Source: Oidiodendron maius Zn (taxonomy: Eukaryota > Ascomycota > Leotiomycetes > Myxotrichaceae). Taken from it: a stretch of DNA of 64,000 bases. Below are positions 1-35,014 of the stretch, piece by piece. How positions within the stretch are numbered: position 1 is the stretch's first letter; each line of letters opens with the position of its first letter. Under the pieces are notes generated by a model. The model saw only the letters and a list, made by a program, of their open reading frames with translations. It was not told the origin of the DNA and searched no databases. The stretch is taken from NCBI GenBank assembly GCA_000827325.1, contig KN832886.1, forward strand, positions 783,629 to 847,628, read 5' to 3'. A program made the translations under genes and the position numbers.

Positions 1-1382
1 GTTGGAAGCGGGTTCGTGAAATCGGACTTCTACCAGAAACAGACCAATGGTGCGTCATCAGTGTTCAGCATAACCGACCCAAAAAAGCACAGTGCACGAC
101 GGCGTCTACTGTCTGCACCTATGTCAGATTCGTCCTTGAAGTCGATGGAGTCCCTTATCAACGAAAAAATTACTCTTGCCATCCAGAGGATAAAAGAGGA
201 GATGGAACTAAGAGGCTCAGCAGACGTATTTAAGTGGTGGTTGTTTATGGCTTCCGATGTGATAGGCCAGTTAACCTTCGGTGACTCCTTTAAAAATCTC
301 GATCGAGGAGTGGTATGATCTCAATTGTACTAACGTCTAGTACTATTCCACTGATTATCGTACAGGAAAATCAGTATTTTTCTGATATGAAGAAAGTTGG
401 TTCTATCGGAGCGCTGAACACAAGCTTTCCAGTTATAGTCAAATTATCACGCACCATACCACTACCCTTCTTTGCGAGTATAACAAGCGCAAGTAAACGG
501 CTGGTCATATATGCTGAACAGTCTCTCGAGCGCTATAAGAAGCTGCTTGATGCCGACCCTACGCACCCACCACCGACACTCTTCACCAAGTTGTTCCAAG
601 CCGGTGAAGAAGGCTTGCCAAATGATGTTCTGAAGGATGAGGCACGAGGGTATATCATTGCTGGCAGTGATACTACTGCAGTCAGCCTTACATATCTCGT
701 CTGGGCAGTCTGCTCCGATGAGAAGATTAAAGCAACTCTGATCGAAGAGCTAGGCTCTCTTCCAGAAAATTTCCAGGACCAAGATACCCGAAATCTTGTA
801 TACTTGAACCAAGTAATTGATGAGACCTTGCGTGTGTACTCGGCTGCTCCGTCCGCTTTACCTCGCACTGTTCCACCTGGTGGCGCAGTCTTGGCAGGCA
901 AACATATTCCCGGAGGCGTCACAGCTACGACTCAGGCATACAGCCTTCATCGAAATCAAGACGTCTTTCCGGATCCTGAGAGGTGAGCCTAATTTCTGTA
1001 GCATTTCCCTGAGATGCATAAAGAACTCTCAGATGTCTAACCGACACCCAACCAGATTCAACCCGACAAGGTGGGTTGCGCCGACAAAGGACATGAAAGA
1101 TGCTTTCATGCCTTTTGGTGGTGGCTCCCGTAGTAAGTTTTACCACTCAATCATGTCACCAAACTGAACTTCTATTTTACTAAGAGATGTGGTATTTAAC
1201 TAGTTTGCTTGGGAATGCACTTGGCACGAATGGAGCTGAGAATGGCCGCCGCCCTCTTTTTTCGTACATTTCCGCATGCGAGGGTATCAAATCTAGAGGG
1301 AATGAGTGATGCGGATATGGCCGAAAAGATATATTTTCTTCTGTCGCCGAAAGGCAAGCGTTGTCTCATACGAGCTTCATGA
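1..1382 (+). CDS. Cytochrome P450 monooxygenase, 3' part (5' end outside window)
   Basis: Heme-thiolate monooxygenase, by family a membrane-anchored ER enzyme using NADPH-P450 reductase. The frame is open from base 1, so the N-terminus lies outside the window. Exons that fit in phase are 1-312, 366-982, 1056-1132 and 1204-1382, giving about 394 residues. Visible motifs are the I-helix AGSDTT, the K-helix ExxR (ETLR), an FNPTRW motif equivalent to PERF, and the heme loop FGGGSR-I-CLG. The heme loop is split by the last intron: the codon for Ile is completed across the junction and the ligand Cys opens exon 4. Introns are 53, 73 and 71 nt with GT-AG ends. The protein ends ...KRCLIRAS. I saw no internal stop or frameshift, so the visible part looks functional. 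Substrate cannot be told from sequence; no neighbour within the window indicates a pathway. Confidence 0.93.
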
Positions 1383-2180
1383 TTATGCATTATGTTACGG
1401 CTCTGGAGAGACCATAACTATGGTCCACGTGATACTCACACGTAATGAGCGAGCGAGGTTGGTATAAGGCACCTGCACTGACCTTAATCTTAGTCTTCCC
1501 TCCTTAGTTTTGTATTCTAAGTTTATAAATCGATATTATGCTTCCACCTTGAGGCCTCTCTCTCGTATTGTAACATTATACAAGATCAGGTTCGCTCTAA
1601 GAACAGGAAGACTTGGGTCGCAGATTGAGGTCAGTGCCTTTACGCAGAACTCCCAACAGTTTGGGACTTGAGACTTGACCGGTCTACAGCGGCTGTGGGA
1701 CAATAACTAGTTGGGCTGTTGGATGATTCTCGATTTCTTTCAAACGTTATGTGAAACGAGATATAGCTTTAGCCATGAGTGGGACTGCAAAAGGCCATTG
1801 GCCTTACACAGTCAACTGGAATAAATCGATTCAATTTAATTTAATTTAATTGAATCAATCAATCCGATCCCTTATCTTCTCCCATCTTTCCTCCTCTTCC
1901 TCCTTTTCCCACTCCACCAGAGTCTACTGGTTCATGTCAGCCACAATTATGGCACCACAACCAGATGCTACACAGCATCTTTTGATAATGACATTACTAA
2001 AGAGATGGTCTGAAACCAAGCTAATAGCAGAAGCCCTATGCAGCTCCCGTGCCATCCAGAGATTCTGTTATACAATAGTTCGAAATTCCCATCCTAAGAA
2101 CAAAACAGCGTCAACTCTCGAAGCTGTATTATTTAAGCCTAGTCGGACTGTCTTGAAAGTAAAATGTAATCTGATCTAGG
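1383..2180. other. Intergenic, no convincing gene
   Basis: I see no supported gene here. A low-complexity stretch at about 1828-1862 consists of repeated ATTTA/ATCA units and forms an imperfect A/T palindrome (GATTCAATTTAA...TTAATTGAATC). An open frame across 1850-2179 has a Ser/Phe-rich composition typical of a pyrimidine-rich tract and no recognisable domain. Confidence 0.5.
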
Positions 2181-3151
2181 CTAATTCATTGGCATATCCT
2201 GTAGGCCCCACGTGAATAGAACCTCGGTCGCTCCCAAAGACTCTGAAATTATCTTGGACAGTGGTTTCACTCTATCCCGTAACCCTTCCCAATGATGCCT
2301 GCCAAGGTCTAGAGTTGGGAGCTGCGGGTAGCGCTTTTCAATGATTCCTAACCAGTTCACGCGATCTACGCGCGCACTGTAGAGCAGGTGCTGAGCATCG
2401 TTCATAATACACTGCTTTCGATCTATCTTGTTCGCCACGTTGTATACACCGAACCCCGACAATGGTACTGCTGTTTCGGTAGAGTCGAATATGCAGGTAA
2501 AAATACCCGTGCCCATGGCCACACGCACATCCACGGAGTTTTGCGGCAGTTTGACTAGGAGTAATCAAAAAGCAAATCCAAGCTATAATCAACTTCTTCA
2601 CATATATTGATAATAACCAAAAAAAGCAACTTCTTTGTTGTGCTCAGAAACATTGGAGAATCCTGCAGTGAATCTCCCACTTAGTAGAAATTCGATAGCC
2701 TCGCCCATGCCCGGGAGAGTCCTCTCGACCGTGATGTCCTGGACGAATAGTATAGTGGCCTCGCTATAGCATCAACCACCATCTATCGATGCTCTCTACT
2801 TGCAGAGCATCTCGCGAAGCTGCCTGTACATGTATGGGTCATACGAACGGATTTCTCGCCATTAAATATAGCAAATTTAACACAGCCCAAGTAAATCCCC
2901 ACCAGGAGCTCACAAAGCCCTCCACTCCTCGCTTCTTCTTTTAGGAGGTTGGAGCGGCATATTTTGAGGTTTAAAGGAATCGATGCAACATTGATCATAG
3001 CATGGATGCTCAGATTATATAGATGAAGAGCCGGTACTACTAACTTCTCGTAAGCGATGAAATCAGGATTGGAAGTCAAGTTCACCAACCGAAGTTGGGA
3101 TCGAGATCTAAGAAGCCAGTCCTCGAATCCGAAATCCGGAAGCGATATCAA
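2181..3151 (-). pseudogene. Possible decayed hypothetical gene (two fragments)
   Basis: Two minus-strand open segments, 3151-2783 (about 122 residues, beginning MISLPDFGFEDWLL) and 2534-2181 (about 117 residues, ending QDMPMN), have protein-like composition. They are separated by about 250 bases with stops. I found no convincing splice pair that joins them, and I recognise no domain. They could be two exons of a lineage-specific gene or remains of one. Function is unknown. Confidence 0.25.
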
Positions 3152-3386
3152 CCTCGGAACTGGAGCTAGTTTGACTCCAACACTCGAGCATACTGAGCCC
3201 TAACAATATTATGGGGCACGTATGTGGGCTCAGCAATATGGCGCTATTGCTGGTGAACGGTTATTTAAGTACCTGTCCGACTCCCATGCCCATTGGCTGA
3301 TGTCGGAATTCGGAAACTGGGAAAAGCTGCATCCTAAGCCAACCATTCCCAGAAACCGTCAAAGAGAATCAGTGTGCTCTTTGGCT

Positions 3387-3604
3387 CGACGGTTTCCTAA
3401 GCCTGTGTCCCACATTGAGCGATGCACGTCGACTTTGAGCACACAATGCGACGCTTTCCTGGATTTCCCAACATATCCTACATCGAGCAACGTACGTCGA
3501 TTGATGTACGTCAATTTTCAGCACAATTATATGCGCGACGGTTTCCCGAAATGCCTGTAGCCCGTCCCACGCCGAACGATGCACATCAATTTTCAGCACC
3601 ACGA
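3387..3604. repeat. Degenerate tandem repeat, three units
   Basis: Three imperfect units begin at about 3387, 3449 and 3536, each opening with CGACG(G/C)TTTCC and carrying a later CGATGCAC(G/A)TC / GTACGTCAATTTTCAGCAC block. Units 2 and 3 share TCAATTTTCAGCAC. Unit length is unequal (62 and 87 bp), so this is an old array. On the minus strand it encodes the repeated string VLKIDVH, but the frames are short and I do not call a gene. Confidence 0.5.
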
Positions 3605-4380
3605 TGGGTCGTCACAGAATGGGCGCTATACGCCGTCTCAATCTGGAGCAGTATCAAAACGATCATCAAGCAGATGGCAGCGCTCGAGATCGAAAGGCAT
3701 ACCTAGGCCACAGGAGATACATGCATTTGGTATGGTTTGAATGATTCCAGCCGCATGCGGCACTGGCTGCCGGGATGCCAAAAGAAATTCAGGTCGTTGA
3801 TCTTACTCTGTTGGGTGTCAGGACCGATCTTCTTGTGTCATCTGACAGACCATACTCATACGGGTGGTTGGTAAATAGAATTGAATGGCTAAGCATAGGC
3901 CCGGTCATGCAACGACATGTTAGCATCTGGCTACCCTGATTCAATCAATTTAGCCCCTTAACGATATTCTCTCAGGTGTACAGTCAACAGTGGGCGTGGC
4001 CCTCCCCATTATGCCGACTGATGTTCGTAATACCCTAAGGTCTGTGGCTGAATTCCATAACTTTTTAGACCGACATACGAAAACTTTCTCCCCATGCCTT
4101 TTCCTTTTTTTCGGATTTTAATCTACTCTAGCATACAGAAGCGCCGCTGTCTTTATGCGGAGTATTTGTTGCCTGTAATGCAGTTTGGAAGCTTGGTGTA
4201 GCGTCCGACCGCGGCAAGATGTCATCTTTATTCGATGGTACACTGTCGCAAATTGTAAAATATTAGTAAGAGTTCTGATTTCTGATGGAAGAGCACAAGT
4301 TTAACAACTAAGAATAGATTTCCAGAAGGTCATTTTCGCTATATCTACAACTTTTTAGTCTACCCTAACGTCTCAGCTTC
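3605..4380. other. Intergenic, nothing recognised
   Basis: No open frame with protein-like composition and no RNA gene or repeat that I could recognise. The last few hundred bases are downstream of the minus-strand secreted peptide gene and would hold its 3' UTR. Confidence 0.5.
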
Positions 4381-4850
4381 TTAGGAAGTCAAATTTATCA
4401 ATCGTGGTGCAAAATCTTCATCTCCATCCTCTCCTCCAGAGCTTCTGGGGCTTCTCGGGCGGCCTGTAGCATGAGAATGCTTTGGTTCGCGCCTCTCAAC
4501 CTCTTCCCCACGTCTTGGATGGGTTGGACGGTTTGTAGGGTGAGAGTGCTTTGGCTCGCGTCTCTCAATTCCTTCTTCATTTTCTCCCCGTCTTGGACGG
4601 GTCGGGCGGTTTGTAGGGTAAGAGTGCTTTGACTCCCGCTTTTGGATATATTCAGGAAAAGGACCAATCGAAGGAAGTTTTGTATCAACAGCCACTGCTT
4701 TAACTGTTTTAGTAGGAATTGGAGCTGTGAATATATCCATTAGCCAGCTTAATGATGAGACGGTTAAAGCGGTTACTTACTTGCGCCCACAATGCTTGAC
4801 ATAGTAAGAAGTCCCGCCAGAGCAGCGTTACAAATGCTTTGAGTCTTCAT
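4381..4850 (-). CDS. Secreted repeat protein, candidate kexin-processed peptide precursor
   Basis: Two exons, 4850-4781 and 4724-4381 (56-nt GT-AG intron), give a 137-residue protein. The N-terminus MKTQSICNAALAGLLTMSSIVGA is a typical signal peptide, ending near the splice junction. After a linker of about 30 residues come three repeats with the pattern (K/R)R-E-(S/P)-KHS-(Y/H)-(P/A)-T-(N/G)-RP-x-x-PR, each preceded by KR or RR. Repeats 1 and 2 are also followed by RRG and an acidic spacer (ENEEG, EEVE). The tail is acidic (GGEDGDEDF). Known for the family: fungal multicopy precursors (alpha-pheromones, KEPs, dikaritin precursors) combine signal peptide, repeats and Kex2 sites. Inferred: Kex2 cleavage would release short cationic Pro/Arg/His-rich peptides. 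No UstYa-type (DUF3328) gene is visible nearby, so a cyclised product is not supported. It may instead be an uncleaved repeat cell-wall protein. Confidence 0.7.
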
Positions 4851-5126
4851 TTTGAACCTGGTATCGAAACTTTTGAGAAAACTTTTGGAAAAAAAAAACT
4901 TTTGACCGTTATTGACAGTACTAGAACTGATGCTGGATATTTGAGATGTTGATGATTTTTGACTTTCAAGCAGAATCTCTGACATTTTATATACAGTTTT
5001 ATCTTCTTAGAATGTTAATTAGAGAGAGAATTGAGGCTTTTGCGAGTCTTTGAATCCTGAATTTCCAAACGACTCTGCCACTGCAAGCCAATCCCATCAT
5101 TCCTCCTGAAATAACTTTGACCAATT

Positions 5127-6134: not shown

Positions 6135-7275
6135 ATGCACAAGATGTACCTAACATGGTACTTACAGTTATTTTCTTTATCGGTTGTATCTGTTGTAGCA
6201 GTACGGCCACATAACATAGGTTCTATTAGTATAATGGGACCAGCGTGTCAAGATATGAGTGGTAGGGACAGTGACCCCCCAGGCAAATACTTTCGTAAGT
6301 AAAACCAGCAGTTGTGAACACGTTTGCTAATGTAGCACAGATGAAAGTGTGTAAGTCGGATCAATAAACAATAATTTACAGTGTAAATATGCTAATAGTT
6401 TCCTACTTAGGTTTCATCCGCATTATGACGGACGGTCTGCAAATCCTGCCACATACTATACCGAATGAGACTAACATCATCCTTTAGATTTGCCGAAAAG
6501 GAATTGGGTTACACAGGGCGTAAACATACTCTTTCTAACCTGATCCAATCCTATCTGGCTACTTTTGTAGACACTGGTGTAGAAACATGGTTGATGCACG
6601 GAACTTTGTTAGGTTGGTGGTGGAATGGCAAGGTAAGTTCAATAGCAGTTTGATTAGACCAAGCCATTGACTTTCTCTTATATGTAGGTATTGCCCTGGG
6701 ATACTGATTCTGATATGCAAATATCTGAAGCATCTATGCATTATCTTGCATCGTACTATAATATGTCTATATTCCACTACAAGACGCTACGGATTCCAGA
6801 GGGCCGAGATTATTTATTGGAAATAAATCCCAACTATGTTAACCGAGACCAGACGGATGAGTTGAACCAGATTGATGCGCGGTGGATCGATACATCTACA
6901 GGACTTTTTATTGATATTACTGCGGCGAGTTATGATCCAACGCACCCCGCTGGAATGGGCATATTGAGCTGCAAGGATGGACATGAGTATCTGGTAGGCA
7001 AAAGATTGCCAAGAACAAAATCTTTGTTTTAACGACTCGTAGGACAGTTACACTTTTCCTTTGAGAGACACTCTGTTCGAAGGGGTACCGGCAAAAGTTT
7101 CATTCGCACCTAGAAAGCTTTTAGAGGCTGAATACCGCAAGAAGGCTTTGACTCTTACTACTTATGAAGGGTATGATATAAACATGGCCCTGTTTATATT
7201 TTGGCACGGAAATGCTGACATGGTTATTTGAGGCATTATTTTAACGACGAAAAGTTCGAGTGGATTCCTCATTAG
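6135..7275 (+). CDS. LicD-family (phosphoryl-choline/mannosylphosphate transferase-like) protein
   Basis: Seven exons give about 271 residues: 6135-6294, 6341-6350, 6411-6434, 6488-6632, 6688-6993, 7043-7170 and 7233-7275. The N-terminus is hydrophobic (LTWYLQLFSLSVVSVVAV), a signal peptide or anchor. The core LicD signature is clear: VETWLMHGTLLGWWWNGK, then LPWDTDSDMQ (the acidic metal/nucleotide motif), IDARWIDTSTGLFIDITA, and the closing HYFNDEKFEWIPH. Exon 2 is only 10 nt but is required to restore KYFHESVFHPHYDGRF across three junctions. The intron at 6435 starts with the unusual donor GTCTGC. Known: LicD domains occur in fungal Golgi/secretory proteins involved in transferring phospho-substituents to glycans. 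The substrate is not known here. No internal stop; it appears intact. Confidence 0.9.
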
Positions 7276-10635: not shown

Positions 10636-12357
10636 TCAGTGTCCGAATCTTGGCCCTACATGTTGTAGTTCAAAATACCTTAATGCAGTCTGAAGGGGCG
10701 CCTTGGAAACTATAGTGCCCTCAAAACAAGATAAAAGATAAGGAGCCGCCTCAAGGATTAAACACGCAGTTTTCTGAGCCATATACAGATCCTCTTCTAA
10801 TGTATCATTCTGAACATCAGGTATACCTCGTTTGAGGTCGATTATGCCCATGAGAAGCTCCAGAAGGAAGTCCCAGTAAGTAATAAGAAGTCCCGCCTTT
10901 TGGCCACTAAGGAATCGGAGTTGGAAGGCTGTATCAGTGAATGAAGGGATGCATTCCATATCAACCTCCACGATCATCCTGGGCATTGGAAGAGTGGAGG
11001 TCCAATACAGCGGCCCACTTTCGGAAGACTTCCAATTGTTGAGCCATTCCTCTATTCTATGCAGGATCGTATAATAATCAACAAGGAGCAAAGAGGCCGG
11101 CCCATGGTCTTGATCGCTAACCCCCGGAGGTCCTCTGCAATCGGATGTGTCGTCCGTGTTGACAAGCCCAGAAATTAATCTATCTGTTCGGTAAAGGAGC
11201 CCAGGGATTTGAAGTGCAAGGTCGTGGAGAAGTTCCCTTCTTGTTTTCCGGAAGCCTTCAAAGGGAAGTTCTATCCAATTTGGTTCCGCTAGGAACGTTG
11301 GCTGGCGTCTGTGTAGCGCAACTGAGACCTGATCAATCGTGAGCGGAACCAAAAGGATGAAAGGGCGATAATGGCTTACTAGGATACCTCTAAAGCCACT
11401 AAATGCTTGCCGTATTTGTGCCGAACGGTACTGTTGGGGCCCAGATAATTCTAGTACGCTCAGTGCTCCATCGACGTGGGTGAAAAGAGCTGCTTCTGAT
11501 GACTCGGTCCCGCGTACGAACTAACAACTTATTAGTGGGGTTACTATAGAAAGCCGAATACGGACACTCTTGATCTCACCTCGAACGTCTGAAATGCTAT
11601 CGTCAACAATAAGAGCAATTGGAGGTTTGCTTTTGGTCGTGACCCCGCATTGCAGTCTACTATAGCTTGTTGGATATATGGATGTGATTCTTCCAAAGCA
11701 GAGGCATATGTTAGCTGTGCAAGTTGTACAAGCCTACTATCGCTCCTTAGACCCCCCATATATGTCATTAGGAGGCTGAAAATAGGGAGGTCCAACCACT
11801 TCATCCTTAAAGACGTTAGGGGGAGTAAGGCTCGAATACATAATGCTGCACTGGAGTACATTGGCTGATTCCGCGACACTCTATCGCCACTGAAGATGCC
11901 CCTCCATGCAAGGGGTTTAAAGTCTTCGATAAGTGTCAAGTACGTAAGTCGGCCAGGCAAAAGCTCCGATATTATGTCTGGAAGTGGACTTGGTCTGTGG
12001 GGAGAGCTCGTTGCTGTTTGCCGTGGCGTATGAGCCTGGCCATTTGAGATTCCAGAGTCCTCGTTAGCTGGTTGTAACTGTCTCCGACTCTGCAGTGCAG
12101 AAGCTAAGGCCCTTCTATGAGACTGCTGGCCTAAGTTTGCGGCATTTCGATGGATAAACGTCCGTGGGTCTCTCAGTCCACTGCACTTGACACCGGCTCT
12201 ACAGCACCGGCGACATTCAGGTGTGCTAAGATCACACTGTTTACTTACACCATCAAAACCAGATTGCGTGAGCGCTCAGATAGGGACATGTACATACTTT
12301 CTTGTGGCGCTGACGGCATTCTTCGCACCCCTGTGATGCGCCCGGGTAGAGAGGCAT
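10636..12357 (-). CDS. Zn(II)2Cys6 transcription factor
   Basis: Three exons (12357-12298, 12236-11580, 11520-10636) encode about 533 residues. The first intron (61 nt, GT-AG) splits the DNA-binding domain. Joined, it reads CEECRQRHKKCDLSTPECRRC followed by CRAGVKC, a canonical C-x2-C-x6-C-x6-C-x2-C-x6-C binuclear zinc cluster at residues 11-38. A Ser/Arg/Gln-rich linker follows, and then a long helical region of the fungal-specific regulatory type (KPLAWRGIFSGDR, the DUF3468-like family). No internal stops. It is transcribed divergently from the isochorismatase-like gene, whose start is 520 bp away. Both flank a 32-bp motif that recurs upstream of the reductase gene, so it is the obvious candidate local regulator (inference). 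Confidence 0.92.
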
Positions 12358-12576: not shown

Positions 12577-12877
12577 TGGATGGGTCTAGACGACAATACT
12601 AATCATACCCTCCAATTGCTCTCTCTGCGCAGCCAAAGGCGCAATTGCGATTGTGTTGCAAAAGGATTGGATCACCAATTAGGCCGCTTCCTATTCAGTA
12701 CCCACAGAAAGTAAACGGCTTGGCTTTTTCCAGCGCGTAAAATACCGTATTTATTTGTTTACTAAACAGTTGCTGCTTATATCAATGGAGTGCGGGCCAA
12801 CGCTGCGTGCAAGATCACCTTCGCTGTTTATTTAACAAGTTTCATACCCTTAGCTGCAACTTCTAAGTCTTGTCACC

Positions 12878-13690
12878 ATGAACTCCCATATTGCAGTCGT
12901 TCTTATTGACCCACTCAACGACTTCCTTCATCTTGATGGGAAGCTGTACCCTCTTATGAAAGCCAGCTTAGAGTTTTCCAGCGCTCTCAAACATATGAAA
13001 GAACTGGTCGAAGCCGCAAGGCTGGCTAATATCCCTATCTTCTATGGTCTGCATCAGATCACTACAGATCACACCTATTCCGGCTGGAACCATATGAACG
13101 CATCCCAGAACAGGATCAAAGATAACAAGGCATTTGATGAAGCGTTTGGCGGCCAGATTTTCAAAGAACTTGAACCTCAGCCTAGCAATGGTGATGTGGT
13201 TGTTTCCCGCCACTGGAACAGTAGGCAAGTACCAGTACCCTTTGTGCCACACCGTAGTCTCATATACTTACATATATTGCCATAGTTCCTTCTCCAACAC
13301 TGATCTAGAGTATCAACTCCGACAGCGCGATATCACAAATCTCGTCTTTGCGGGCTTAACCACCAACACTTGTGTCGAGTCTACCGCGCGACATGCCCGC
13401 GAACTGTGAGTATTTCTATGCCGTTGATATCATTTTCTTGATCATTGTTGCTGACGTGGTGGTGCTACAATAGCGGGTTTCACATTACTCTGCTGTAAGT
13501 TATGGAATAACTTTCCGTATCATTGGCGAAATGCCGCTCAGATCATATAGCTAACTGAGTCAGTACTGACGCAACTGCCGCGTTTTCAGTTGAGTTAGAA
13601 GAGGCAGCAACAAAAGTAGTCTGGCCAGTCATTGCGGATAAACTCATGATGGTTAGCCAGTGGGTGGCTTCAATTAAAGTGCGACTGTAA
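12878..13690 (+). CDS. Isochorismatase-like cysteine hydrolase
   Basis: Four exons (12878-13224, 13286-13405, 13474-13494, 13564-13690) encode about 204 residues. The family splits C-N or ether bonds (isochorismatase, nicotinamidase, ureidoacrylate hydrolase types). Seen: the N-terminal VVLIDPLNDF with the catalytic Asp, and TTNTCVESTARHAREL with the nucleophile Cys after the usual cis-peptide region. A basic residue before the Cys-bearing strand should complete the triad (SRHWNSSSF region), though the position usually held by Lys is not obvious here. Intron 1 uses a GC donor (GCAAGT...CATAG); it restores WNS-SFSNTDLEYQL exactly. Exon 3 is only 21 nt. Length fits the family. The partners are a divergent Zn2Cys6 gene and a downstream convergent reductase. 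The substrate is unknown. Confidence 0.88.
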
Positions 13691-14156: not shown

Positions 14157-15241
14157 TTATAGCGAACTATCTCTCGACTTCTCCATCTCTAGAAATGCAT
14201 GCGCCATATCAAGGAATGTTTCCGAAAACGACCGAAATTTTATTCCAAGAACATTTCTCGCCCTCGAATTATCAGCGATATAGTGTTCACCGATGGTTGG
14301 TTTGCCTCGACTTCCGACCGGTACGCGATTCTCCAGCGTGGAGATATGAGCCCGGAATAGATCACATACCTGTTGCATGTCGAAATCGCCGCCCGAAAGA
14401 AGAAACCTTAGTGGTTGTTCTGCTTCAAATGCCAGGCGATGTGCTTCCGCTACATCGCGAACATCTACAAAAACAGGCACCATGGTTGGTGGCACCTTCG
14501 TCATAGATCCATTCATAAGCGCATATATTTCTGACGTAGATTGCCCAAGGTGCCTGAGATCTCCAGATCCAGGGAATGGTGGACCGTAGACCATAACTGG
14601 ATTGATAGTAGAAAGAGAGAACTTGATGCTGGGGTTTACTGCAGCAAAATGCCACGCCGCTTCTTCTGCCAGCTTTTTGCTACCTCTGTAGAGTCAGTTA
14701 GTAGAGAATAAAGAGCCTTGCATCTGATAGGAGCTCACCCATATGCAAGACCTTTCTTGTCGTCCTTTGTCTCTTGGTACGTTATCGGATTCCACTGCGA
14801 TTCGTCATAGACATGTCCCGGCCTCAACCCCTTGGAAAAATCGGCAATCGCAGCAAATGAAGAAGTCACAACAACACGTTTGACCTTTGGAGCCAAAGAA
14901 TGTGCGCTTTCTAAGATTCTAGTTGTGCCATTTATTGCTGGCATAATCAAATTTCTCTCATTGTCTGTTATTTTGTAAGTGAAAGGAGATGCCATATGAA
15001 TTATTCCATCAACGTCTTTGACAGCTTCATCAAATGCTCCAGGTCTCGTGATATCGGCGACTATTTGGGTTTCCAGGTAGTCTCGATATTGACGATGGGT
15101 AGAGAGGAGGCGGTCACAACTCTCTTGGTTACGAGCAGTGGCTCGTACCCGATATCCATGCGACAAAAACTCCGAGACAGCGTGGTTTCCGATGAAGCCG
15201 GTTCCACCAGTAACTAAAACCAGGGCCTTGGAGTTAGACAT
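14157..15241 (-). CDS. NAD(P)-dependent extended SDR reductase (dihydroflavonol/aldehyde-reductase type)
   Basis: Two exons, 15241-14739 and 14685-14157 (53-nt intron), encode about 343 residues. An extended short-chain dehydrogenase/reductase: the N-terminal Rossmann motif VLVTGGTGFIG is at residues 8-18, a basic RVRATARNQE segment favours NADP(H), DGIIHMASPF follows, then VVVTSSFAAI with the catalytic Ser, and YGGSKKLAEE, which gives the Tyr-x3-Lys pair across the intron. The C-terminal half VDVRDVAEAHRLAFE is typical of DFR-like reductases. An in-frame ATG at 15268 would add nine residues. I prefer 15241 because the added part is unlike the family and ends like a splice acceptor. It probably reduces a carbonyl. 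Its promoter carries copy 2 of the 32-bp motif. Confidence 0.92.
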
Positions 15242-15472
15242 TTCGATTGAGATTGCTGCAAATGACACTTATATAAGATGCTCTGAATAATATCGGCGGA
15301 TTGTTTTAATCTAAGAGGAATTTTTCAAGTCACAGCCTTCCTCTTATACCTTTAAGTGGGGCTAAATACCCCGCGGTCAATGAACTTATTTCCGCCAGAT
15401 TATAAAAGAGTTTCGCGGCTATTTTACCGACATGTTTCTCCTTCTAGGGGCATCGTGGGTAAGAGCCAGCGC

Positions 15473-19073: not shown

Positions 19074-22000
19074 GGTTATAAGCCCGGCTGCCTTAGGTTA
19101 GTCGGAATCACCCAGCTTCAACTCAAATCACTTGAATAGGCAGCAATTATAGCCAACCAAGGGTCCAGCTCGATGTTCCTCCCTAAGCCTATATAGCTAG
19201 AGGGAGAAGATAACTATAAGGACTAGAAGGATAATATAACCCTATTCCTAGGCTCAAAAGGACTAGCCAAGTTCATTATAAAGGGGTCGATTATAGCTGA
19301 ATCAGATGAAGTTAACTACCAGAGGATAATATATACGATATCAATTAAGGGGTCAGTTCACCCTGAACTGGCTGTAAGGCTAAAGGGGGTTACAGATCCA
19401 GCTGAAATAATACACCTACTCGACTAGAGGTATACCTCAACTAGGTAGAACCTTAAGCACAAGTATTTAACTAAATACAATACCCTAAAAGTCGAACACC
19501 ACGACTCGATTAGTGTATTTGTTGACTAATACAAGGCTCTTAAGTCAAAACTTGATACTATTAGACTACCCCTACTAGAGGAGGTTTATACAATCAACTT
19601 TATTACACTCCTAGACATACAGTACCCTATATAGGCAGACTAGCAAAGGTCTAATATATATAAAACATCACTAACCCTGCTAGACCTTATAGTTAATATC
19701 CTAGACAAGTCTCAGAAAGCTGAAAAAGCAACAACTACACTATATAGTAGGAAGCCAGACACAAAAAAGGGATGCCAGGGTTATAAGAGTAATAAGAATA
19801 AGGGTAATATAGTCAAGTATAGCCACTACAAAAAGGAAGGCTATATTGAGCCTAAATACTAGCTAAAGTACCCTAAACTAAGACTCTCAAGGGGTAAGAA
19901 CCAGAAGAAGAAGAATAATAAGGATAATAAAGACAATATACTAGTACTCTTACTAATAGCCCTTCCAACTAAGTCAGGGCTAGCATAACACTCCTAGTGT
20001 TTCAACAATAGCGTAGCATTATATATTATATATATATATACAAATTTTGAGTCCTATACTCTAAATAATAGGTCACTATAGACTATATTAACAGCCAATA
20101 GACCTGCTATACCACTAGGCAGTAATACAGTCAGAATAGAAGTTAAGGGTTATAATAGCAAGCCTCTAAAGCTAGAGCTAAAGGATATATTACATTTACC
20201 CTCTATACCAATCAACCTCTTCTCTAGACAGTAGTTCAAAAAATACACTAGAGGAGGATACCTTAAGAAGGGAGTCCTCTATACTGGTAATAATGAACCA
20301 GTAGCTCCAATCAAGACTACTAAGTCAGGGCATTTCCTAAAGGTAATAAAGGAGCCTATATTTATATATATATTATTAAGCTCAATGAGCTTAAAGCTGA
20401 AGCCCTTAGTCCTATAGTATAAACGTCTACTATATACCTCTCTAGATAGGGTAAAAGAGACAGTACAGATTATAAAGGGTATATCGATTAAGGCTAGCCA
20501 ATTAGAGCCAGGGCTGTACTGTATATACTAGGTAGCTAATTCGATTCAGAATGTATTATATACACCTCAATCAAGATAATAGAATGTATTTGAACTAGTA
20601 TATATTGATATCGAGAAGATATCACCAGTCAGCTTTAATAGCTATATATAGGCTAGCCTATTTACAGACAATATAATATATGCTAGGTAAGCCTAGTCCT
20701 TTAAGAATAAAGGTAATATATATCATTCAATTGTATATTTCAATCAACTGGTTAAGATACAGTAGAATGCTACTATAAAGATATATTGGATTAACAGGGG
20801 CAAGGAGTATAGTAGAGACAAGCTAGTCCAGCAGCTAAAGAAGTATAGAATACTGTCTGAGATCACTACTCCCTATATACCTGAACAGAATAGTATTATA
20901 GAGTATACAAACCGCACAATATTCAGTAAGGTAAAGAGTACTATTAAGGACTCCAACCTGCTACTAGAACTATAGCCTGAAATACTGCTAGATATAGTCT
21001 ATATTACAAACTATATAGCCATCTCTTCACTTGATAAGATAACTCTAGCAGAAGTATTTAAACGTTAGGTCCAACTAGGACTACAAGACACTAACTACTT
21101 GCTAGATATCAGCCACCTATATATCCTAGGCTATAAGGTATATATAAATATCCCTAAGGAGAGAAGGATCAAGAGCATAAAGCTAGCCCCTTATACAGAG
21201 GAAGGCTACTTTATAGGGTTTAAGGGGAGTAAGATATACTATATCTACCTCCTAGGCAGGGCTCAAAAGATCATACAAATATTACACTATATATTCGATA
21301 AATCAAAGCCTCTAGAAGAAGCCTATAAAAACCCAGAAAATACACCTGATTTAATCTGGCTACTAGAGGAAATCAAATACACCCCTAAAGCTACTAGCCA
21401 AGGGGAAGACAGTGGCCTTAATCAAGAGTATAACCCTCTCACGACTATTATAGTCGATACAGAAGCAGATCAGGACAGTAATAGTAATCCTAGTCTACCT
21501 GTACCTAAAGGGAGAGGTTAACTAAAAGGATCAAAGAATAAGGTAAAGTTCTTAGAACCACCAACTATACAACTAGGCTCAAAGACACCTAGTCAGACTA
21601 GACTACCTAATCAAATCAATTAAGAGGAGTCTAGTCAGGGGAGTAAGGCTTAGGGTAACCAGGACTAGCCTCCCCTAGATCTCTTAAATCAATAGATCAC
21701 TCGATTATACACCTAGGGTAATCCAGCCCTATTTACAACTACCCTACTAGCCACTCAGGTTAGTGGATATATAGCAGCTATTTCAGACTATAAGGAGCCG
21801 AGAACAGTACAGGAGGCTAAGGACTTATCTGACTAGCTAGAGTAGCTAGAAGCCATATATACAGAACTAAGGTCCCTGATTAAGAATAAGACCTGGAGAG
21901 CAGTATTAGTCAGTAAAGGCTATCTTAAAGCCCAGGGTAAGAAGCCCTTAGGTACTAAGTAGGTATTCAAGATCAAGCATAATACCGATAACCAGATTAT

Positions 22001-24019: not shown

Positions 24020-26051
24020 TCACTTCTCTAAGTAATCGCCTTTCGCCCAAGCTCTCAATACATTCTTTTTCAATTTTCCTGTACTTGTCTTTGGCAACTC
24101 CTGCACAATCTCCACTTCTCTTGGTACCATAAACTTAGTGATGCTACTCTGATGTTTTGCCCATATGATCAAGTCCTGCCCCTTTAAGGTCTTTCCCTCC
24201 TTTATCGTAATAAAGGCTTTCGGTCTCTCTCCCCAAAGCGAATCAGGAACTGCAACAATTCCTGCTTCTAGCACATCAGGGTGCTGTACCAGCATGGACT
24301 CAAGGGCTACAGACGAGATATTTTCACCTCCTATAGTTCCAAGACTATTAACACCTAGGTAACACAGAACTTCAAAAGCGGAGAGAAAAACGTACCAGAA
24401 ATGATAATATCTTTTTGGCGGTCTAGAATCTGGATGCTTCCATCTGGGTGCCAGACTGCCAGGTCCCCAGAATGAAGCCCCCCACCGGCAAACAGCTCCC
24501 TTGTTGCTTGGGGATTATTAAGGTACTCTTTTGCGCAAATATTTCCGAAGAAAACAACCTCTCCGATCTCTTTTCCGTCTTTCGCAACATCAATCAACAT
24601 ACCCTCCGGATACTCCATCTTAATTACCCGCAGCGGCAAACTGGTAATAAAGCCGTGGCCCTGTCTCGCCATTCTAGCGTACTTTTCCTTCGTCGGAAGA
24701 GTCTCCCAGGTGGGCATGTGATATCCCTTTGTGATGGGTCCATAAGTTTCTGTGAGGCCGTACACGTGAACAGGCATGAGGTTTAGGTTAGTCATTTGCT
24801 CAAATAGGTGCGCGGTAGGTGGTGATGCAGCGACAGTGACACGGATGGGGTTCGGAAGCCTCTCGGCTTCTTTAGCAGCGCAGAGGAGTGTATTGACAGT
24901 AGGAGCAGCGTTAAAATGAGTTATTGCTTCTGTTTTGAGCAATTTCCAGATGAGGGGGTAGTCAATTTTGCGGAGGCAGAAGTGCGTCCCGCGAACGGCT
25001 GTTACGGCCCAGGGGAATGCTGAACGCCTTGTTAGCATTCGGTACATAGATTAATCTGAAGATTGAGTAATTAAAGGCCAGTCTTCAATTATTTAGCCTG
25101 GTTTCGTTGTAGGGGGTTAATACATCACATCCCCACTTGGATATTTTAAGTCCAGTCTCAAGTTGCATTGAAAGTCACAGCCGTGGGCCACTCTGCCCAC
25201 TGAATTGATGGCAACTCTGGGCCATTAAGTTCAAGATCAATAACAACTCAAAGAAATGACTTACTCCAACCCATAGCATGAAACATAGGCAGCGTCCAAA
25301 GATAACCACACCTCCCAACGTGGTAATTCAAGCCACTCTCAATGACATTTCCCAATGCTGCCAAGTATGCCCCACGGTGGGTATAGACGACACCCTTCGG
25401 CTTTGCTGTCGTACCGCTTGTGAACGGAATGGCAATGGTTGCACCTTCGTCTTTACAACTCGCCTCGAGTGCATCCCATCCATTGGCTCCGTTTTCTTCA
25501 TCCCATCTCAGCCCCTCAAGAACCACTGCGTCAAATGGCCCAGAAGGTGCATTTTGGTCCGTATCAATTATAATTGGGATATTCGGATGTAAAGTCTTGA
25601 AGTCATCTAGAAGGGAAATGTATTCCACGTCCACGATAACGGAGTCGACTTTTGCGAAGTCAAGGATGTACGTGATATCCTCTTTCTTCAATCTATAATT
25701 GACTACGACATTGATTCCACCGCTTGCTCCAATGCCGAAGATGCTTTCGAGAAATGCAGGCGTATTGGGTGCCAATATGCCGACGCGACATAAGCTATGC
25801 TTGAGCAGGTAGTAAGCTATCCCGCGAGCTCGGTCTGCAAATTCTATGTAGGATCGTCGTAGGATCTGATTGTCAGCCGTAACGTGGAAGATGGCTTCAG
25901 CATCTGGTTCGATTTGGGCCGCGCGATGGAGAAAGAGTGTCGGGGAGAGTTGGTGGATGTGATGGTTGTGAGTATAAGCATCTGCTGAAGCAGTGGATGA
26001 AGGATCTATATGAGAGAGGACAGATGTCAATCGGCTGGTTGGCGGTGACAT
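24020..26051 (-). CDS. AMP-forming acyl-CoA ligase (ANL superfamily)
   Basis: Three exons (26051-25265, 25019-24396, 24330-24020) encode about 573 residues. The enzyme activates a carboxylic acid as acyl-AMP and transfers it to CoA. The ANL motifs are in order: A3 PFTSGTTAKPKGVVYTHRG, the LPMFHAMGWTFPW region (spliced over a 245-nt intron), A5 VYGLTETYGP, A7 LHSGDLAVWHPDG, DRQKDIIISGGENISSVALE (across intron 2, 65 nt), and A10 PKTSTGKLKKNVLR with the catalytic Lys. This order and length fit medium-chain or aromatic acyl-CoA ligases rather than NRPS adenylation domains; no carrier domain follows. The C-terminus GDYLEK is not a classical peroxisomal SKL signal. The gene looks intact. A broken partial copy of its C-terminus exists at about 39950-40220. 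Confidence 0.95.
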
Positions 26052-27714
26052 GTTGGCTGTTGATTTTCTAAAAGAAGTTTGAGGCTGTGGATTTGAGGTG
26101 AATGCGGCATTCTGCAGCAGTCATCTATATATCCCAACCATTGCCGTTTCTGGATACCTTTCGAGCGTGGAAAACCAATGAGGGAGCAGACAATTCATGG
26201 GCAAGGCAACCGTTTTTTATTCACGGCAGGGGGAAATACGACAAGGTTGAAGAATGCGCCCCCACTGGAGCGGGACCTGACGCCAGGCCACGATGTAGCC
26301 AACTAAACTACTTTCCTCCAGCGAGAATCTTCGCTCCGCCCACATTCGTCCTCGATATTGCCAGTAGTCAAAGGACTCGGCTGGGAATCAGGCAGATGCC
26401 CGCCCTTTCTGTGTACGATGCTGAGAATCGCACTCACGACTTGGATGACGAGGGTGTCTTGGGGTTGGCAGGGTCACTTTCCTTGCAGGTTCACAGTGCT
26501 GGTTCGCGGTTTGAATAATATTTTCCGTGCCTCGCAAAATATTCCTAATTAAGCTTCGCGCGTTGGAAAGGTTGCTGGGACGCTAACCAATGATCAAAGT
26601 TCTGCGGATTCTTCCACGCGAACACTATCTTGTGCGAGTTGCTTGAGCACTATCCATTGTTCTGACCTTTATGGAAATGAATTCGTGGCTCCTGGCCGAA
26701 ACTGCTCGAGCCGCATTCTCCCACTGGCTTGAAACAATCCTCTCTATTACACCAGGTTCAGTCGTCCCTGTTACGGAAAATCTTTCCAAATGAAGGATAA
26801 TACATACCTGTAGTTGTATGGTGTCAACGACCTCTCTTATGTCCTCATAAATGGTATTCTTCCGGAGTATTATCTCCCAGCAAAACGCCAGAGTCCAGTT
26901 CCAATATCGGGAATAACTTCAATTGATGCTAGTGAGGAATTACTTCTTTAATGCAAAGGAACATGTCAAAAAAGTTCTGTGGCGTAGGTATACGGGCTGC
27001 GCTCGGTGAATTTACGCGGGTAGGTACGTGGATGTCGTTTTCGCTGGCCCCTATTTATATGGTCCTATGATCTAAATCCCGGCGGTAGATACCTAAACAG
27101 TCGTGACTATTAAAGCACTCAGGGGCAAGTACCACGTCCTGGTAGTCTCTAGGAGCCAGTAAGAGGCTCTAAATAGTCAGAGGGACGGAGTATGCTTTGA
27201 CGCCCTGAAGTGATGCGACAGAGATATTGAAGCCGTTAAGAGGCCTGTAATAGAGGACAATAGCTCATCAAAAAATCACTCATAATCATCATGATCAGTT
27301 AAAAGGTAGTGTGCAATAAGTAAAAGGTAATGTTCAATAGGTTGCCATCTGGCCATCCTCATCTTCCATTGTACTGTAAGAAGAGAGCAAAGCAGATCTA
27401 CAACCCCATCTAGCATCTATCTGTCTTAAGGTATATGTATGCATCGTTATGAGTAGGGGGTAAGTAAATCGCACCTTCTAGTACACTGGGGTCGACAAGC
27501 TCAGAAGATAAATATGCAGAAATTCTGCAAAAACATGAAGTGTTAACCAAAGAGAGCTCAATTCCATATATCCAAGATTACATTTTAAGAGTTCATTCCT
27601 AACTATGTCTACCGATCAGCACGTTAGCCACCGGAAAATGTTATTTCATCCGTTTTCTCAATGGGCTTCGGCCTTTTTATAATGTGGGGAAGCTGAGCGG
27701 GGCGAGATCAAGGA
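26052..27714. other. Intergenic (1.7 kb)
   Basis: Upstream of the acyl-CoA ligase and downstream of the acetate-permease-like gene. A 138-codon frame at 26102-26518 begins 50 bases from the ligase start on the other strand and shows no motif; I do not call it. Nothing else recognised. Confidence 0.5.
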
Positions 27715-28679
27715 TTAGACGGTCTTGTGATTGGTTCTAGCGCGGGCCTCGATGGCGTGGGCGGACCAGGGGAAGTGCGCTACAGGGACGACGAAGAAGG
27801 AGTTGCTGTGATCGTCAGCTGGGCTGGAGATGAATTCGCTTTCGAACGTACCTATCGTCGGCAATACCCGCGAACGCGTTGTACCACGCTCCGAAGGCTG
27901 CAAAGAGGCCGAAGTAGCCACCAGCTTTGATGATGTCAGCCTTGGGGGCACCACCCTCGCCCTGCAGCCAGCCAATGGCGAGCAGCAGGAAGGCCATGTC
28001 TACCAAAAAAAAGGTCAGGAAGAAGGCGACGGTGGAGCGAAGCGTGCAGAAGACCATGATGGTAGTAAAGATGAACCACCCGGTGAGGAAGAAACCAAAA
28101 GCGTTGTTGAAATCATTGCCTGAGTATGCCGATGCAATATCGAAGCCACCGGGGGTCAGTACGATAGCGAAGGAGATCCAAAAGCCGCCGTATGAGGAGA
28201 GTGCAGTAGCGCCGAATGTGTTTCCGACAGCCATCTCCCTAATGTATTGAATTAACCCAGAACTGAAGAGGTAATACCTGAATTTATCACTCGTATCTGT
28301 ATAACACATACCACATGCCCGCTAGTAACTGAACAAGACCACCGTAACCAAGGGCCAGCGCTAGAACAATGTTCGGCTCAGTCACATTCTTAGCCTGGAC
28401 GTTGATGAGCGATAGCACAAAGGTGGTCAGGGCGAAGGCGCTCAATCCCAGCGGCGCTGGGTTGGCGAACTTGCGCTCGGTGGTGGGTTTGTAGAGGCCA
28501 GGTTGTAGTTCTCCTCCAAAGGCCGCATACCGGGCAGATTCACCTGTGTTGAGGTGGGCCAACTGGTTGCCATCGTGGAAACGCTGGATCGTACTGCTTT
28601 TCTGGCCGTTGACATCGCTGTTGGACTGGACATCAGTATCGACTTTAACTGTATAGTCTGTAGTCTCAGTAGCGGACAT
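27715..28679 (-). CDS. GPR1/FUN34/YaaH-family acetate permease-like protein
   Basis: Three exons (28679-28312, 28238-27852, 27805-27715) encode about 281 residues. The family signature [15 protein letters not shown] opens the first membrane segment at about residue 75. [20 protein letters not shown] is restored across intron 1, and five further hydrophobic segments follow ([67 protein letters not shown]). The end [12 protein letters not shown] is typical. The N-terminal 70 residues are polar and probably cytosolic. Known members (AcpA, Ady2) move acetate and other short monocarboxylates with protons across the plasma membrane. No defects seen. The neighbouring acyl-CoA ligase and acyl-CoA dehydrogenase fit an organic-acid-use context (inference). 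Confidence 0.95.
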
Positions 28680-29128
28680 GACGAGCTCATATATAATAAC
28701 AAGAATAACAACAAGTTGGGAAGATACGGGGCGATAAGAGGATATAGTCGAGGAGAGCGGAGTCGAAGAGAGGAAGGGAGAAATACAAACACGTGGCGGT
28801 ATTTATGTTTTTAACCAGAGACGCACAGAGTGCTGGCGGGGGAGTTAGGCAGGTAATGATAGACGTATCGCTAGCTTTGGACCGTGTAGTACAGCCTTGA
28901 GCGGTACAGGGCGCCGCTAAGATTGTACTGTAAAGCAAGCACCCGACCAGCAATGCACATCCATCCGTCCGGTGGCCCAACGACCCCGGAAGAGCGGCGA
29001 TGGTGGGCGAGGGGTAAATGTCTCGAGGGAAAATTAGTGATAGACTGAATCGCCGGGGTAAATGTTTTGCATTTACGTGTGAAATAATAGCGTGATATCG
29101 TTCTCGGTCACATTACTAGACAGAGTAG
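28680..29128. other. Intergenic, promoter side of the permease gene
   Basis: Contains the upstream region of the permease. No gene recognised. Confidence 0.5.
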
Positions 29129-32397: not shown

Positions 32398-35014
32398 CTA
32401 TACATACACAGGGGATATGCTATTACAGCTTCTATCTGAATTGATATAGTCGTTAATATTGATATCCGTACCCACATCTGCCAGCCCGGGAGTGTCCACC
32501 CCATTGTTATTGTAGTTACATATGAGGTCACTGTTTGAAGTAGCTGTACTCGTCTCCGCATGTGTTTCTGGTCCAGCTGGTGTAAGACCAATTAAAGTAC
32601 TGTGATAAAAGCACTCATCCATAATGATTCTAGTATCAGCTGTACGATTTCCAAGCAAATGAATCCTACCCTCTTCAGAAAGCGAAGGTGTATGTCGAGA
32701 TACGTTCGGGAACATGTACACACCCTCAATCAGGTCGTCAATAACTGTCAGCGGTTTATCATCACACCCCACGCTCTCTCGTGGCCCCAAGTAACAATTC
32801 TCGGTATCGATACCGACTTTCCGTAATGCAGCTTCGATGAACTGAATTGCGAAATTAGCGGACGCATAGATATCCTTTAATGTTTCAAGCACGGCCATGC
32901 ATTAATAGAAGCCATCCATGGCAGTTTGCCTGGCTGCACCATTGCCTTCCTTGATATCACGTAGGTGAACAATAACTGCTGGGAGCAAGACCATAACACC
33001 AGTTGTTGGGAGATACCTATCAAGCCTATTTTCATGGAGTCTTTGTAACATAGAGGTGATCTCTTTAGATGCGAGACGGACCTTCTTGAGAGAAAGATCC
33101 CGTAGCTTCTGATATTTGTCTCGTTTTGTAATTGGGCCTGAGAAAAAGAGCTGTGGCCTGTGCAGAGCAGAAACAGCGGCAAAATATACCATGTGCAGCA
33201 GAGATCTCTGCAAGAAGACCAAGGCTCCACTCGTTCCAGGATCAACTTTCTCTCCGTACAGGCAGCATTCAGGTAGCTTTGCGGCCCATGTATTCAACTC
33301 TTCGTCACAACGTTTGACCTCACTGGCCTGGTCCAGTAATTTGAGAAAAGGCACCGCGTCGGGACGAGAATATCCATCCTGTCCCTGTGGCCCTCGTGCG
33401 AGAATTATAAAGGAATGTTGTGCCGTCAGCACATGGCTTATACAAGTGCAGAGTTTTGTTTTCGATATGCACATCTGAGCCAGCTGTCTCTGTGCTTCAA
33501 CATCTCTGACTAATGTGCAATAACTTGAGATAATAGTAACATTATGGGAAGTAGAAGAAATCTCGAAATCCTCTTCCGTCAGCATTGTAACGTCATAAGC
33601 ATCGTCCTGTATTCTTATTGGTCTCATCATGCCTAATGCAACCAAACGGTCGCGCATAAAACATGACCACCATATCCTTTTCCTGAGTTTCTTCTTCTTG
33701 AGCTCGATGTTTAGTTTTTCTGGATTTCGATGTAAACCGATCGTATATGCGACGGAAATTGCTATACCCAACCAGTGCCAAGTGTTCTTCTGATCGTCGG
33801 GTGTCTCATACCAGAAAGTCATGAGGAGTAGAGATTGTGCAACGGCGATGCGATCGATTTCGTAGTCAAAGTCATACAAGATCTATACTTTTTAGCACAT
33901 TCTATGAAAGTGAGGACGAGACATACCCTAACTTTTTGGAAGAATGCTTTCCGAGCTGCCATCCTATTTGAATAACCCATACTTCTTAAAACTTCAATGC
34001 CGACAAAGGCTGTGCCTGCAAACATAACCGATTGAAATAGCAGCAAACTCAATTCGCCGTTCTCTCCAGTTCCGTCATCAATTATCTGCAAAAACTCGTG
34101 AGTCTCAATTAGAGGCATGCAAGGGTGAACAAATTCGAGATAGGCCTGAAGGAGCGCATTTCTAGCAGGTGTTGTTGGGATGTATAAAGCGCCTGTATCA
34201 AACAGGTAGCTCATATCAATATAGCTCATATGAGCAGGAGCAGGCTTGAGATAATCGGGAAGTTTGTGGCTTGGCATAGGTGCCATGGAAATTGGCAGAA
34301 GGGGATTGAGGTAAGCATAAGACGTGCTCCCATGTATCGTGGCTACATTATGGGAAAAGACGGAATTCGGTTCATTGGTAAAATTTGATTGCTGTTTGTG
34401 GATTTTAGCACCACTCTGCTGGTGATTCGCGGCTTGGACTGACTGTCAACTTTGTCCTACAGGAGCCAGAATACAAAACTTACAGATTGAATAAGCGAGA
34501 TGATTCTCATTCAAGAAATCTCCGTTAGCTATATCATTAGACACAGTGGTCAAACCATTCCACCTCCGATATTCAGTGTCCATAATTTCTGGATAATTTA
34601 ATAAACTAGTTTCCCAAGTTTGCGCTTCTACCATATCGGGATGTTCTGCTAGAGCTGTTGTTGCTTTGGCGGGCTGACTATTATTTGGATGTTTTCTGGT
34701 CCACATCAGCATAAATCCTACTCGGACAGAGCCTCGCAAACTCACTTGCGGCTTTTGCTTTCCTGAATCACACATCTGATGCCGTCCATGACACAGTTCG
34801 AACAGGCGACTGTGCCGTCAGCAGAAACATGATATCTCTGCAGAAGATCGCACCTAACCTTCCTTACGCGACATGCTGCGCAAGCCTTCGCAGCCCTCTT
34901 TTTCGCAACTCTCTTTTCCGGAACCTTCATTTTACCAGCGTTCGACTTTCCCTTTGCATCAAGTTTCACGGAAGCCTCAAACGCTTTCTTGAACCCTGTG
35001 TCGGTAGAATCCAT
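32398..35014 (-). pseudogene. Cutinase-regulator-like Zn2Cys6 transcription factor with one nonsense codon
   Basis: Exons 35014-34746, 34695-34484, 34438-33927 and 33882-32398 join in phase to about 825 codons. The DNA-binding domain is CAACRVRKVRCDLLQRYHVS...CSNCVMDGIRCV, with a longer loop between Cys 3 and Cys 4 than usual, preceded by the basic KRVAKKRAAK. This resembles the CTF1-type regulators of cutinase and fatty-acid genes. The middle homology region (AQSLLLMTFWYETPDDQKNT, WHWLGIAISVAYTIGLHRNP) is of the Fungal_trans type. At 32904-32902 a TAA interrupts DGFY-stop-CMAVLETLKDIYAS, where the family pattern suggests Gln. After it the same frame runs 168 more codons with protein-like sequence. 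A truncated 657-residue protein could still be made. It is transcribed divergently from the acyl-CoA dehydrogenase fusion, starts 571 bp apart. Confidence 0.8.

What the first reader, a model, noticed from the sequence alone, without database searches (positions are those of the whole stretch)
4381..4850. Multicopy Pro/Arg/His-rich peptide precursor with kexin sites
A 137-residue protein combines a signal peptide, three near-identical repeats of about 16-17 residues, KR/RR before every repeat, RRG after the first two, and acidic spacers between them. The repeat unit (for example ESKHSYPTNRPTRPRR) is cationic and Pro/Arg-rich, recalling proline-rich antimicrobial peptides of insects in composition. 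Seen: the layout and repeats. Known: Kex2 cuts after KR/RR in fungal pheromone, KEP and dikaritin precursors. Inferred: it releases several copies of a secreted cationic peptide. No UstYa-type oxidase is visible, so a cyclised RiPP is not claimed.
Basis: partly seen in the sequence, partly recalled or inferred. Interest (0 to 1): 0.8.

Follow-up and report, generated by a model that had tools for sequence, protein, structure and literature searches.

The report
Fungal multicopy secreted peptide precursor gene

Summary
The gene is real, on the minus strand: ATG 4850, a 56-nt intron (4780-4725), stop 4381, 137 residues. A signal-peptide-like start and a pro-region precede three 16-residue repeats (9 to 13 of 16 identical), each directly after KR or RR. 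The repeats differ mainly at synonymous sites (pS/pN 2.84; 0 of 1000 neutral simulations reach it), so the peptide sequence was selected. It works like a Kex2-processed repeat protein (KEP), a known, very diverse fungal class.

Two points change. First, the RRG sites after repeats 1 and 2 have proline at P3, scored 0.01 in a published Kex2 matrix; the sites before the repeats score 17 to 48 times higher, and repeat 3 has no RRG. Likely products are three head-plus-tail peptides of 24, 21 and 35 residues, net charge 0, 0 and -1, though residues beyond the cut and at P4 partly favour RRG. Second, likeness to insect proline-rich antimicrobial peptides is no better than composition gives. No UstYa was found in what was scanned. 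No relative was found, but no fungal collection could be searched. Ordinary in kind.

The parts
4781..4850 (-). Exon 1: residues 1-23 (signal-peptide-like) and the first base of codon 24
   Evidence: gene model; most hydrophobic 12-residue stretch 1.91 at residues 10-21, 5 of 5000 shuffles as hydrophobic near the N-terminus; V-G-A before the proposed cut, judged by the recalled (-3,-1) rule
4725..4780 (-). 56-nt intron, GTAAGT...GCTAAT...CACAG, phase 1
   Evidence: without it the frame from ATG 4850 stops after 25 residues (end of the ORF 4773..4985); branch-site likeness of GCTAAT is recalled
4381..4724 (-). Exon 2 with stop codon
4636..4724 (-). Pro-region TPIPTKTVKAVAVDTKLPSIGPFPEYIQKR (first base of its first codon is in exon 1)
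4636..4641 (-). KR of the Kex2-type site IQKR before repeat 1
   Evidence: site score 0.099
4588..4635 (-). Repeat 1 head ESKHSYPTNRPTRPRR; its RPRR end has Pro at P3
   Evidence: site score 0.0050
4558..4587 (-). Acidic tail 1 with the site before repeat 2, GENEEGIERR
   Evidence: site IERR score 0.087
4510..4557 (-). Repeat 2 head EPKHSHPTNRPTHPRR; its HPRR end has Pro at P3
   Evidence: site score 0.0037
4489..4509 (-). Acidic tail 2 with the site before repeat 3, GEEVERR
   Evidence: site VERR score 0.174
4441..4488 (-). Repeat 3 head EPKHSHATGRPRSPRS; no dibasic pair at its end
4384..4440 (-). C-terminal acidic tail SGGEDGDEDFAPRLINLTS with an N-L-T sequon
4988..4993 (-). TATA-like box TATATA, 143 nt before the ATG
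4227..4232 (-). AATAAA, poly(A)-like signal downstream of the stop

Best explanation
A low-copy, kexin-processed peptide precursor of a fungus, working like a KEP. The signal peptide takes it into the secretory pathway; Golgi Kex2 cuts after the KR/RR before each repeat ([IV]-[QE]-[KR]-R then E); Kex1 trims C-terminal basic residues; three linear peptides are secreted, each with a basic His/Pro/Arg head (E-[SP]-KHS-x-x-T-x-RP-x-x-PR) and an acidic tail, about neutral overall. The peptide is most likely an external signal or interaction peptide. Shown: gene anatomy, repeats, selection on the amino acids between repeats, charge layout. Inferred: secretion, cutting, which sites are used, function, and the taxon (fungal by its neighbours' Pfam domains; a filamentous ascomycete is a guess).
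For: Open spliced frame with a GT-AG intron. Strongest tandem array of the window. Synonymous bias in this frame and in neither other sense frame (2.84 against 0.87 and 0.43; 0 of 1000 neutral simulations). KR/RR before 3 of 3 repeats. By the matrix of PMC2515848 the three sites before repeats score 0.099, 0.087, 0.174 and the two after repeats 0.0050 and 0.0037. Glu at P1' in 3 of 3 sites before repeats, where that paper's abstract reports a preference for negative residues. Aliphatic P4 at these 3 sites fits PMC8528282. Repeat 3 has no RR at its end. Basic heads and acidic remainder are segregated (54 of 20000 shuffles as extreme). No UstYa Pfam match in 37 of the 114 ORFs of 90 aa or more (ORF list) and no paired H..HC motif.
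Against: No transcript, peptide or orthologue seen. KR/RR number alone is not above composition. On the choice of sites: the RRG sites have Glu at P2' (2 of 2) and at P4' (1 of 2), which the abstract of PMC2515848 also calls favourable, while the sites before repeats have none there (one search read); the RRG sites have Arg and His at P4, the highest P4 values of the matrix (1.00, 0.73), and PMC10699272 says that Kex2 prefers positive over negative residues at P4 and P3, whereas two of the sites before repeats have Glu at P3. PMC8528282 says that P3 makes no direct contact with Kex2. The matrix is for the S. cerevisiae enzyme. RRG is kept in 2 of 3 repeats. Having only two units bounded by dibasic pairs on both sides, it would by my reading fail the literal filters of both KEP surveys.
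Confidence: 0.6

Rival explanations
1. All five dibasic sites are cut: free 14-residue basic peptides (two copies) act as a proline-rich antimicrobial peptide, acidic spacers being discarded.
For: Insect apidaecin-type precursors also carry several copies separated by a conserved oligopeptide (PMC11678341 passages); a KEP type (P-4) is listed with the Pfam Apidaecin profile (PMC7329392 Table 2); repeat 2 NRPT-HPR aligns with formaecin NKPTPHPR; acidic P2'/P4' and basic P4 at the RRG sites.
Against: Charge of the free 14-mers only +2 and +1; the third copy stays in a -1 fragment. Best-of-nine alignment scores are reached by 554, 393 and 721 of 2000 shuffles of repeats 1, 2 and 3. No Apidaecin match at E up to 1. 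Proline at P3 of both RRG sites.
Confidence: 0.12
2. All five sites are cut, but the free 14-mers are signals or interaction peptides rather than antimicrobials.
For: Acidic P2'/P4' and basic P4 at the RRG sites; both KEP surveys cut at every dibasic pair.
Against: Proline at P3; repeat 3 has no RR, so only two of three copies would be freed.
Confidence: 0.15
3. An alpha-type mating pheromone precursor, with Ste13 trimming.
For: Same precursor plan; an XP dipeptide (EP), a Ste13 target, follows the site in repeats 2 and 3 (signature in PMC6339444).
Against: No cysteine after the signal peptide and no PYG[LM]P[IV]G in the sequence, the two patterns described in PMC6339444; repeat 1 begins ES, so the signature holds in 2 of 3 and is not reiterated.
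Confidence: 0.04
4. A secreted low-complexity wall or matrix protein in which the dibasic pairs are just composition and nothing is cut.
For: KR/RR number is not above shuffled expectation.
Against: The pairs lie at the same place before 3 of 3 repeats, with aliphatic P4 and Glu P1'; the repeats are under selection.
Confidence: 0.09

Closest known systems
Kex2-processed repeat proteins (KEPs), PMC6339444 and PMC7329392
   Same: Signal-peptide-like start, three similar units, each after KR/RR; the 16-residue unit falls in the 9-24 aa class, the commonest in most Dikarya; no DUF3328 gene found, as for 6120 of 7878 KEPs in PMC7329392
   Different: Only two units are bounded by dibasic pairs on both sides; the unit is not among the conserved cores printed in the Results of PMC6339444
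Rep1 / Ece1 / CA0365 polypeptide precursors (PMC2515848 passages)
   Same: Repeats with Kex2 sites; CA0365 has three repeats, each with a further internal site
   Different: Rep1 has ten and Ece1 seven repeats; no sequence comparison was made here
Insect apidaecin-type multipeptide precursors (PMC11678341 passages)
   Same: Copies separated by a conserved oligopeptide; Pro/Arg content
   Different: Likeness of units not above composition; predicted products near neutral

Membership tests
KEP (Kex2-processed repeat protein) | Signal peptide | tested here: inconclusive
   Hydropathy (5 of 5000 shuffles) and recalled (-3,-1) rule; SignalP was not available
[quoted passage not shown]
   Three units, KR/RR before each
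KEP (Kex2-processed repeat protein) | Literal survey filters: three similar fragments before the C-terminal one (PMC6339444), or three repeats of 8 aa or more between sites (PMC7329392) | tested here: not met
   Judged by reading the fragments; neither pipeline was run. Two similar fragments are bounded on both sides, the third is C-terminal. I take these as survey filters, not as the definition: the 2019 paper says that some pheromone precursors have fewer repeats
KEP (Kex2-processed repeat protein) | Actual Kex2 cleavage | not testable with these tools
   Needs peptidomics
Dikaritin-type cyclic RiPP | UstYa (DUF3328) gene nearby | tested here: not met
   No Pfam match in 37 of 114 ORFs of 90 aa or more; 2 lone H..HC motifs, no pair, in the six-frame translation (motif recalled). 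The other 77 ORFs were not scanned with Pfam, and the window begins 4.4 kb from the gene
Alpha-pheromone of Pezizomycotina | Two-cysteine or PYG[LM]P[IV]G core | tested here: not met
   No cysteine after the signal peptide, motif absent on reading (sequence; patterns)
Insect proline-rich antimicrobial peptide | Sequence similarity beyond composition | tested here: not met
Insect proline-rich antimicrobial peptide | Cationic charge of the mature peptide | tested here: inconclusive
   +2 and +1 for free 14-mers; 0, 0 and -1 for head-plus-tail products

The most novel reading that the evidence does not exclude
The gene makes an undescribed type of kexin-released peptide: charge-segregated, net-neutral chains with a His/Pro/Arg head and an acidic tail, from a low-copy precursor whose internal RR pairs are shielded by proline at P3, so that surveys which cut at every dibasic pair mis-predict its product or overlook the gene. 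Such chains could pair head to tail, or bind metal through the KHSH head, outside the cell.
Probability: 0.25. Interest if true: 0.45.

Novelty: new member of a known kind. Interest (0 to 1): 0.3.

Why it matters
KEPs are numerous and their functions largely unknown (PMC9769878 abstract, listing); 2560 of 7878 in one survey had no relative (PMC7329392). This gene gives a concrete, testable case of a point that the surveys' cutting rules leave out: whether proline before a dibasic pair protects it, so that a 'spacer' is in fact part of the peptide. If so, predicted products of other KEPs with P-R-R or P-K-R ends would need revision. Otherwise it is one more member of a large class.

Tried and rejected
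Relatives: none in genome contigs (74 stretches matched a pattern, none confirmed), viral contigs (2, none confirmed) or the PDB (E up to 10); these hold bacteria and archaea, viruses and solved structures, so the absence says little about fungi. Pfam gave one sub-threshold match for the protein (Toxin-JAB1, E 0.28, 12.1 bits against a cut-off of 21), taken as chance. Six unit strings searched in the paper library: 0 papers; supplementary tables were not readable here, so I cannot say that the sequence is not listed in the KEP surveys.

Own genome: none held, so a second KEP, the kex2 gene or a canonical alpha-pheromone gene could not be sought outside the window.

Proline-rich antimicrobial peptide reading: tested, not better than composition. 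Cyclic RiPP: no UstYa found in the part scanned. Intron as a folded element: z 0.76, nothing. Crude search for another KEP-like ORF: of the 30 ORFs that passed its filter this one is best (13 matches), but the next has 11, so the measure discriminates poorly. LicD as a partner enzyme: LicD is not in the text of any of the 20 papers listed (of 31 found); left as a passing note. A likeness of RPTxP to plant CEP peptides was thought of from memory and not tested; repeat 3 lacks it.

Full report
What is there. The gene lies on the minus strand. ATG at 4850, exon 1 to 4781, a 56-nt intron 4780-4725 beginning GTAAGT and ending CACAG, exon 2 4724-4381; 137 residues. Without splicing the frame from this ATG ends after 25 residues (ORF 4773..4985, which begins at an upstream in-frame ATG). 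A TATA-like box lies 143 nt before the ATG and an AATAAA downstream. The protein has a hydrophobic N-terminus (5 of 5000 shuffles as hydrophobic there), a 30-residue pro-region ending IQKR, and three units: ESKHSYPTNRPTRPRR, EPKHSHPTNRPTHPRR and EPKHSHATGRPRSPRS, matching at 13 (1-2), 11 (2-3) and 9 (1-3) of 16 positions, each followed by an acidic stretch.

Is it more than chance. The array has the highest tandem-repeat score in the window, 193 against 72 for the next of 9 rows. Between the three 57-nt units, pS/pN summed over the three pairs is 2.84 in the proposed frame, 0.87 and 0.43 in the other two sense frames; 0 of 1000 simulations that placed the same kinds of change at random on unit 2 reached 2.84 (mean 1.36, highest 2.81). 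One antisense frame gives 3.08, but it holds a stop in all three units. So the amino acids of the units have been kept while silent sites changed. Against this, the mere number of KR/RR pairs (5) is ordinary for the composition: 851 of 5000 shuffles have as many.

What it most likely does. The plan is that of Kex2-processed repeat proteins. The surveys cut at every dibasic pair (PMC6339444 methods; PMC7329392 methods). I scored the five sites with the Kex2 matrix of PMC2515848 Table 1. The three sites before the repeats score 0.099, 0.087 and 0.174; the two RRG sites after repeats 1 and 2 score 0.0050 and 0.0037, because proline at P3 has the value 0.01. Repeat 3 lacks the RR pair (PRSS). This fits a precursor cut only before each repeat. 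The products, after Kex1 trimming, would be ESKHSYPTNRPTRPRRGENEEGIE, EPKHSHPTNRPTHPRRGEEVE and the 35-residue C-terminal peptide, with net charge (Lys+Arg minus Asp+Glu) 0, 0 and -1; heads +4, +3, +3 and tails -4, -3, -4. Charges are segregated between the heads and the rest of the repeat region in a way that 54 of 20000 shuffles match, the RR of the sites being counted with the tails.

What speaks against that choice of sites. The abstract of PMC2515848 reports preference for negative residues at P1', P2' and P4': the sites before repeats have Glu at P1' (3 of 3) but nothing acidic at P2' or P4', while the RRG sites have Glu at P2' (2 of 2) and P4' (1 of 2). The RRG sites also have the best P4 residues of the matrix (Arg 1.00, His 0.73). 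PMC10699272 says positive residues are preferred to negative ones at P4 and P3, and two of the three sites before repeats have Glu at P3. PMC8528282 states that P3 has no direct contact with Kex2, though it gives aliphatic P4 as preferred, which the three sites before repeats satisfy. The matrix rests on the S. cerevisiae enzyme. The site choice is therefore a prediction, not a result.

The antimicrobial reading. Multiple-copy precursors exist for insect proline-rich peptides (PMC11678341 passages), and one KEP type is listed with the Pfam Apidaecin profile (PMC7329392 Table 2). Here, local alignment of each unit with nine such peptides gives best scores reached by 554, 393 and 721 of 2000 shuffles of the unit; single comparisons of repeat 2 with apidaecin 1b (0.028), repeat 2 with Bombus apidaecin (0.0395) and repeat 1 with pyrrhocoricin (0.035) are low before allowing for 27 comparisons. 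Even if all sites are cut, the free 14-mers have only +2 and +1. The reading is possible, not supported.

Other readings. Not an alpha-pheromone by the two patterns in PMC6339444, though EP after the site in repeats 2 and 3 is a possible Ste13 signature. No UstYa: 37 of 114 ORFs of 90 aa or more, and one shorter, were scanned with Pfam (one ORF twice) and the H..HC motif occurs twice in the six-frame translation, never paired; the window starts 4.4 kb from the gene, so one flank is short. Deletion of kep genes in Coprinopsis cinerea (six investigated) gave no detectable phenotype, and its authors suggest a role towards the biotic environment (PMC9769878 abstract and passages); this, by analogy, is the basis for 'signal or interaction peptide'.

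Relatives and novelty. Most KEP types are found in a single genus (PMC7329392), so an unrecognised sequence is expected. Papers: of PMC6339444 I read the abstract, the Results (both parts) and the pipeline section; of PMC7329392 the abstract and the sections on diversity, DUF3328 neighbours and detection, plus passages; of PMC2515848 section 7 and passages; of PMC9769878, PMC11678341, PMC8528282 and PMC10699272 passages only; other papers were seen as search listings.

Noticed in passing
6135-7200 (+), approximate: LicD-family gene in several exons with a signal-peptide-like start, transcribed divergently from the peptide gene with about 1.3 kb between the start codons (Pfam LicD E 8e-8 for the 6688-7029 ORF; frames). 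The joint near 6470 was not resolved (intron or frameshift).
   Followed up: partly
294-983 (+), 49818-50510 (+): Two cytochrome P450 gene pieces.
   Followed up: no
11547-12275 (-), 32905-34445 (-), 41695-42264 (+): Transcription factor genes: Fungal_trans at 32905-33882 (weak continuation to 34445), Fungal_trans_2 at 41695-42264, and only a sub-threshold Zn_clus match (E 0.054) at 11547-12275.
   Followed up: no
21069-21518 (+): Retroviral polymerase SH3-like domain, probably a retrotransposon piece.
   Followed up: no
24358-26120 (-), 27818-28802 (-): AMP-binding enzyme near a GPR1/FUN34/YaaH-family gene, same strand.
   Followed up: no
12854-13282 (+), 14738-15268 (-), 35651-36250 (+): Isochorismatase-like ORF, NAD-dependent epimerase/dehydratase ORF, and an ORF joining cytochrome b5 and acyl-CoA dehydrogenase N-terminal domains.
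   Followed up: no
53783-54859 (+), 55110-56803 (-): Fungal rhodopsin-domain membrane protein beside a carboxylesterase gene (the outer pieces match below the cut-off).
   Followed up: no
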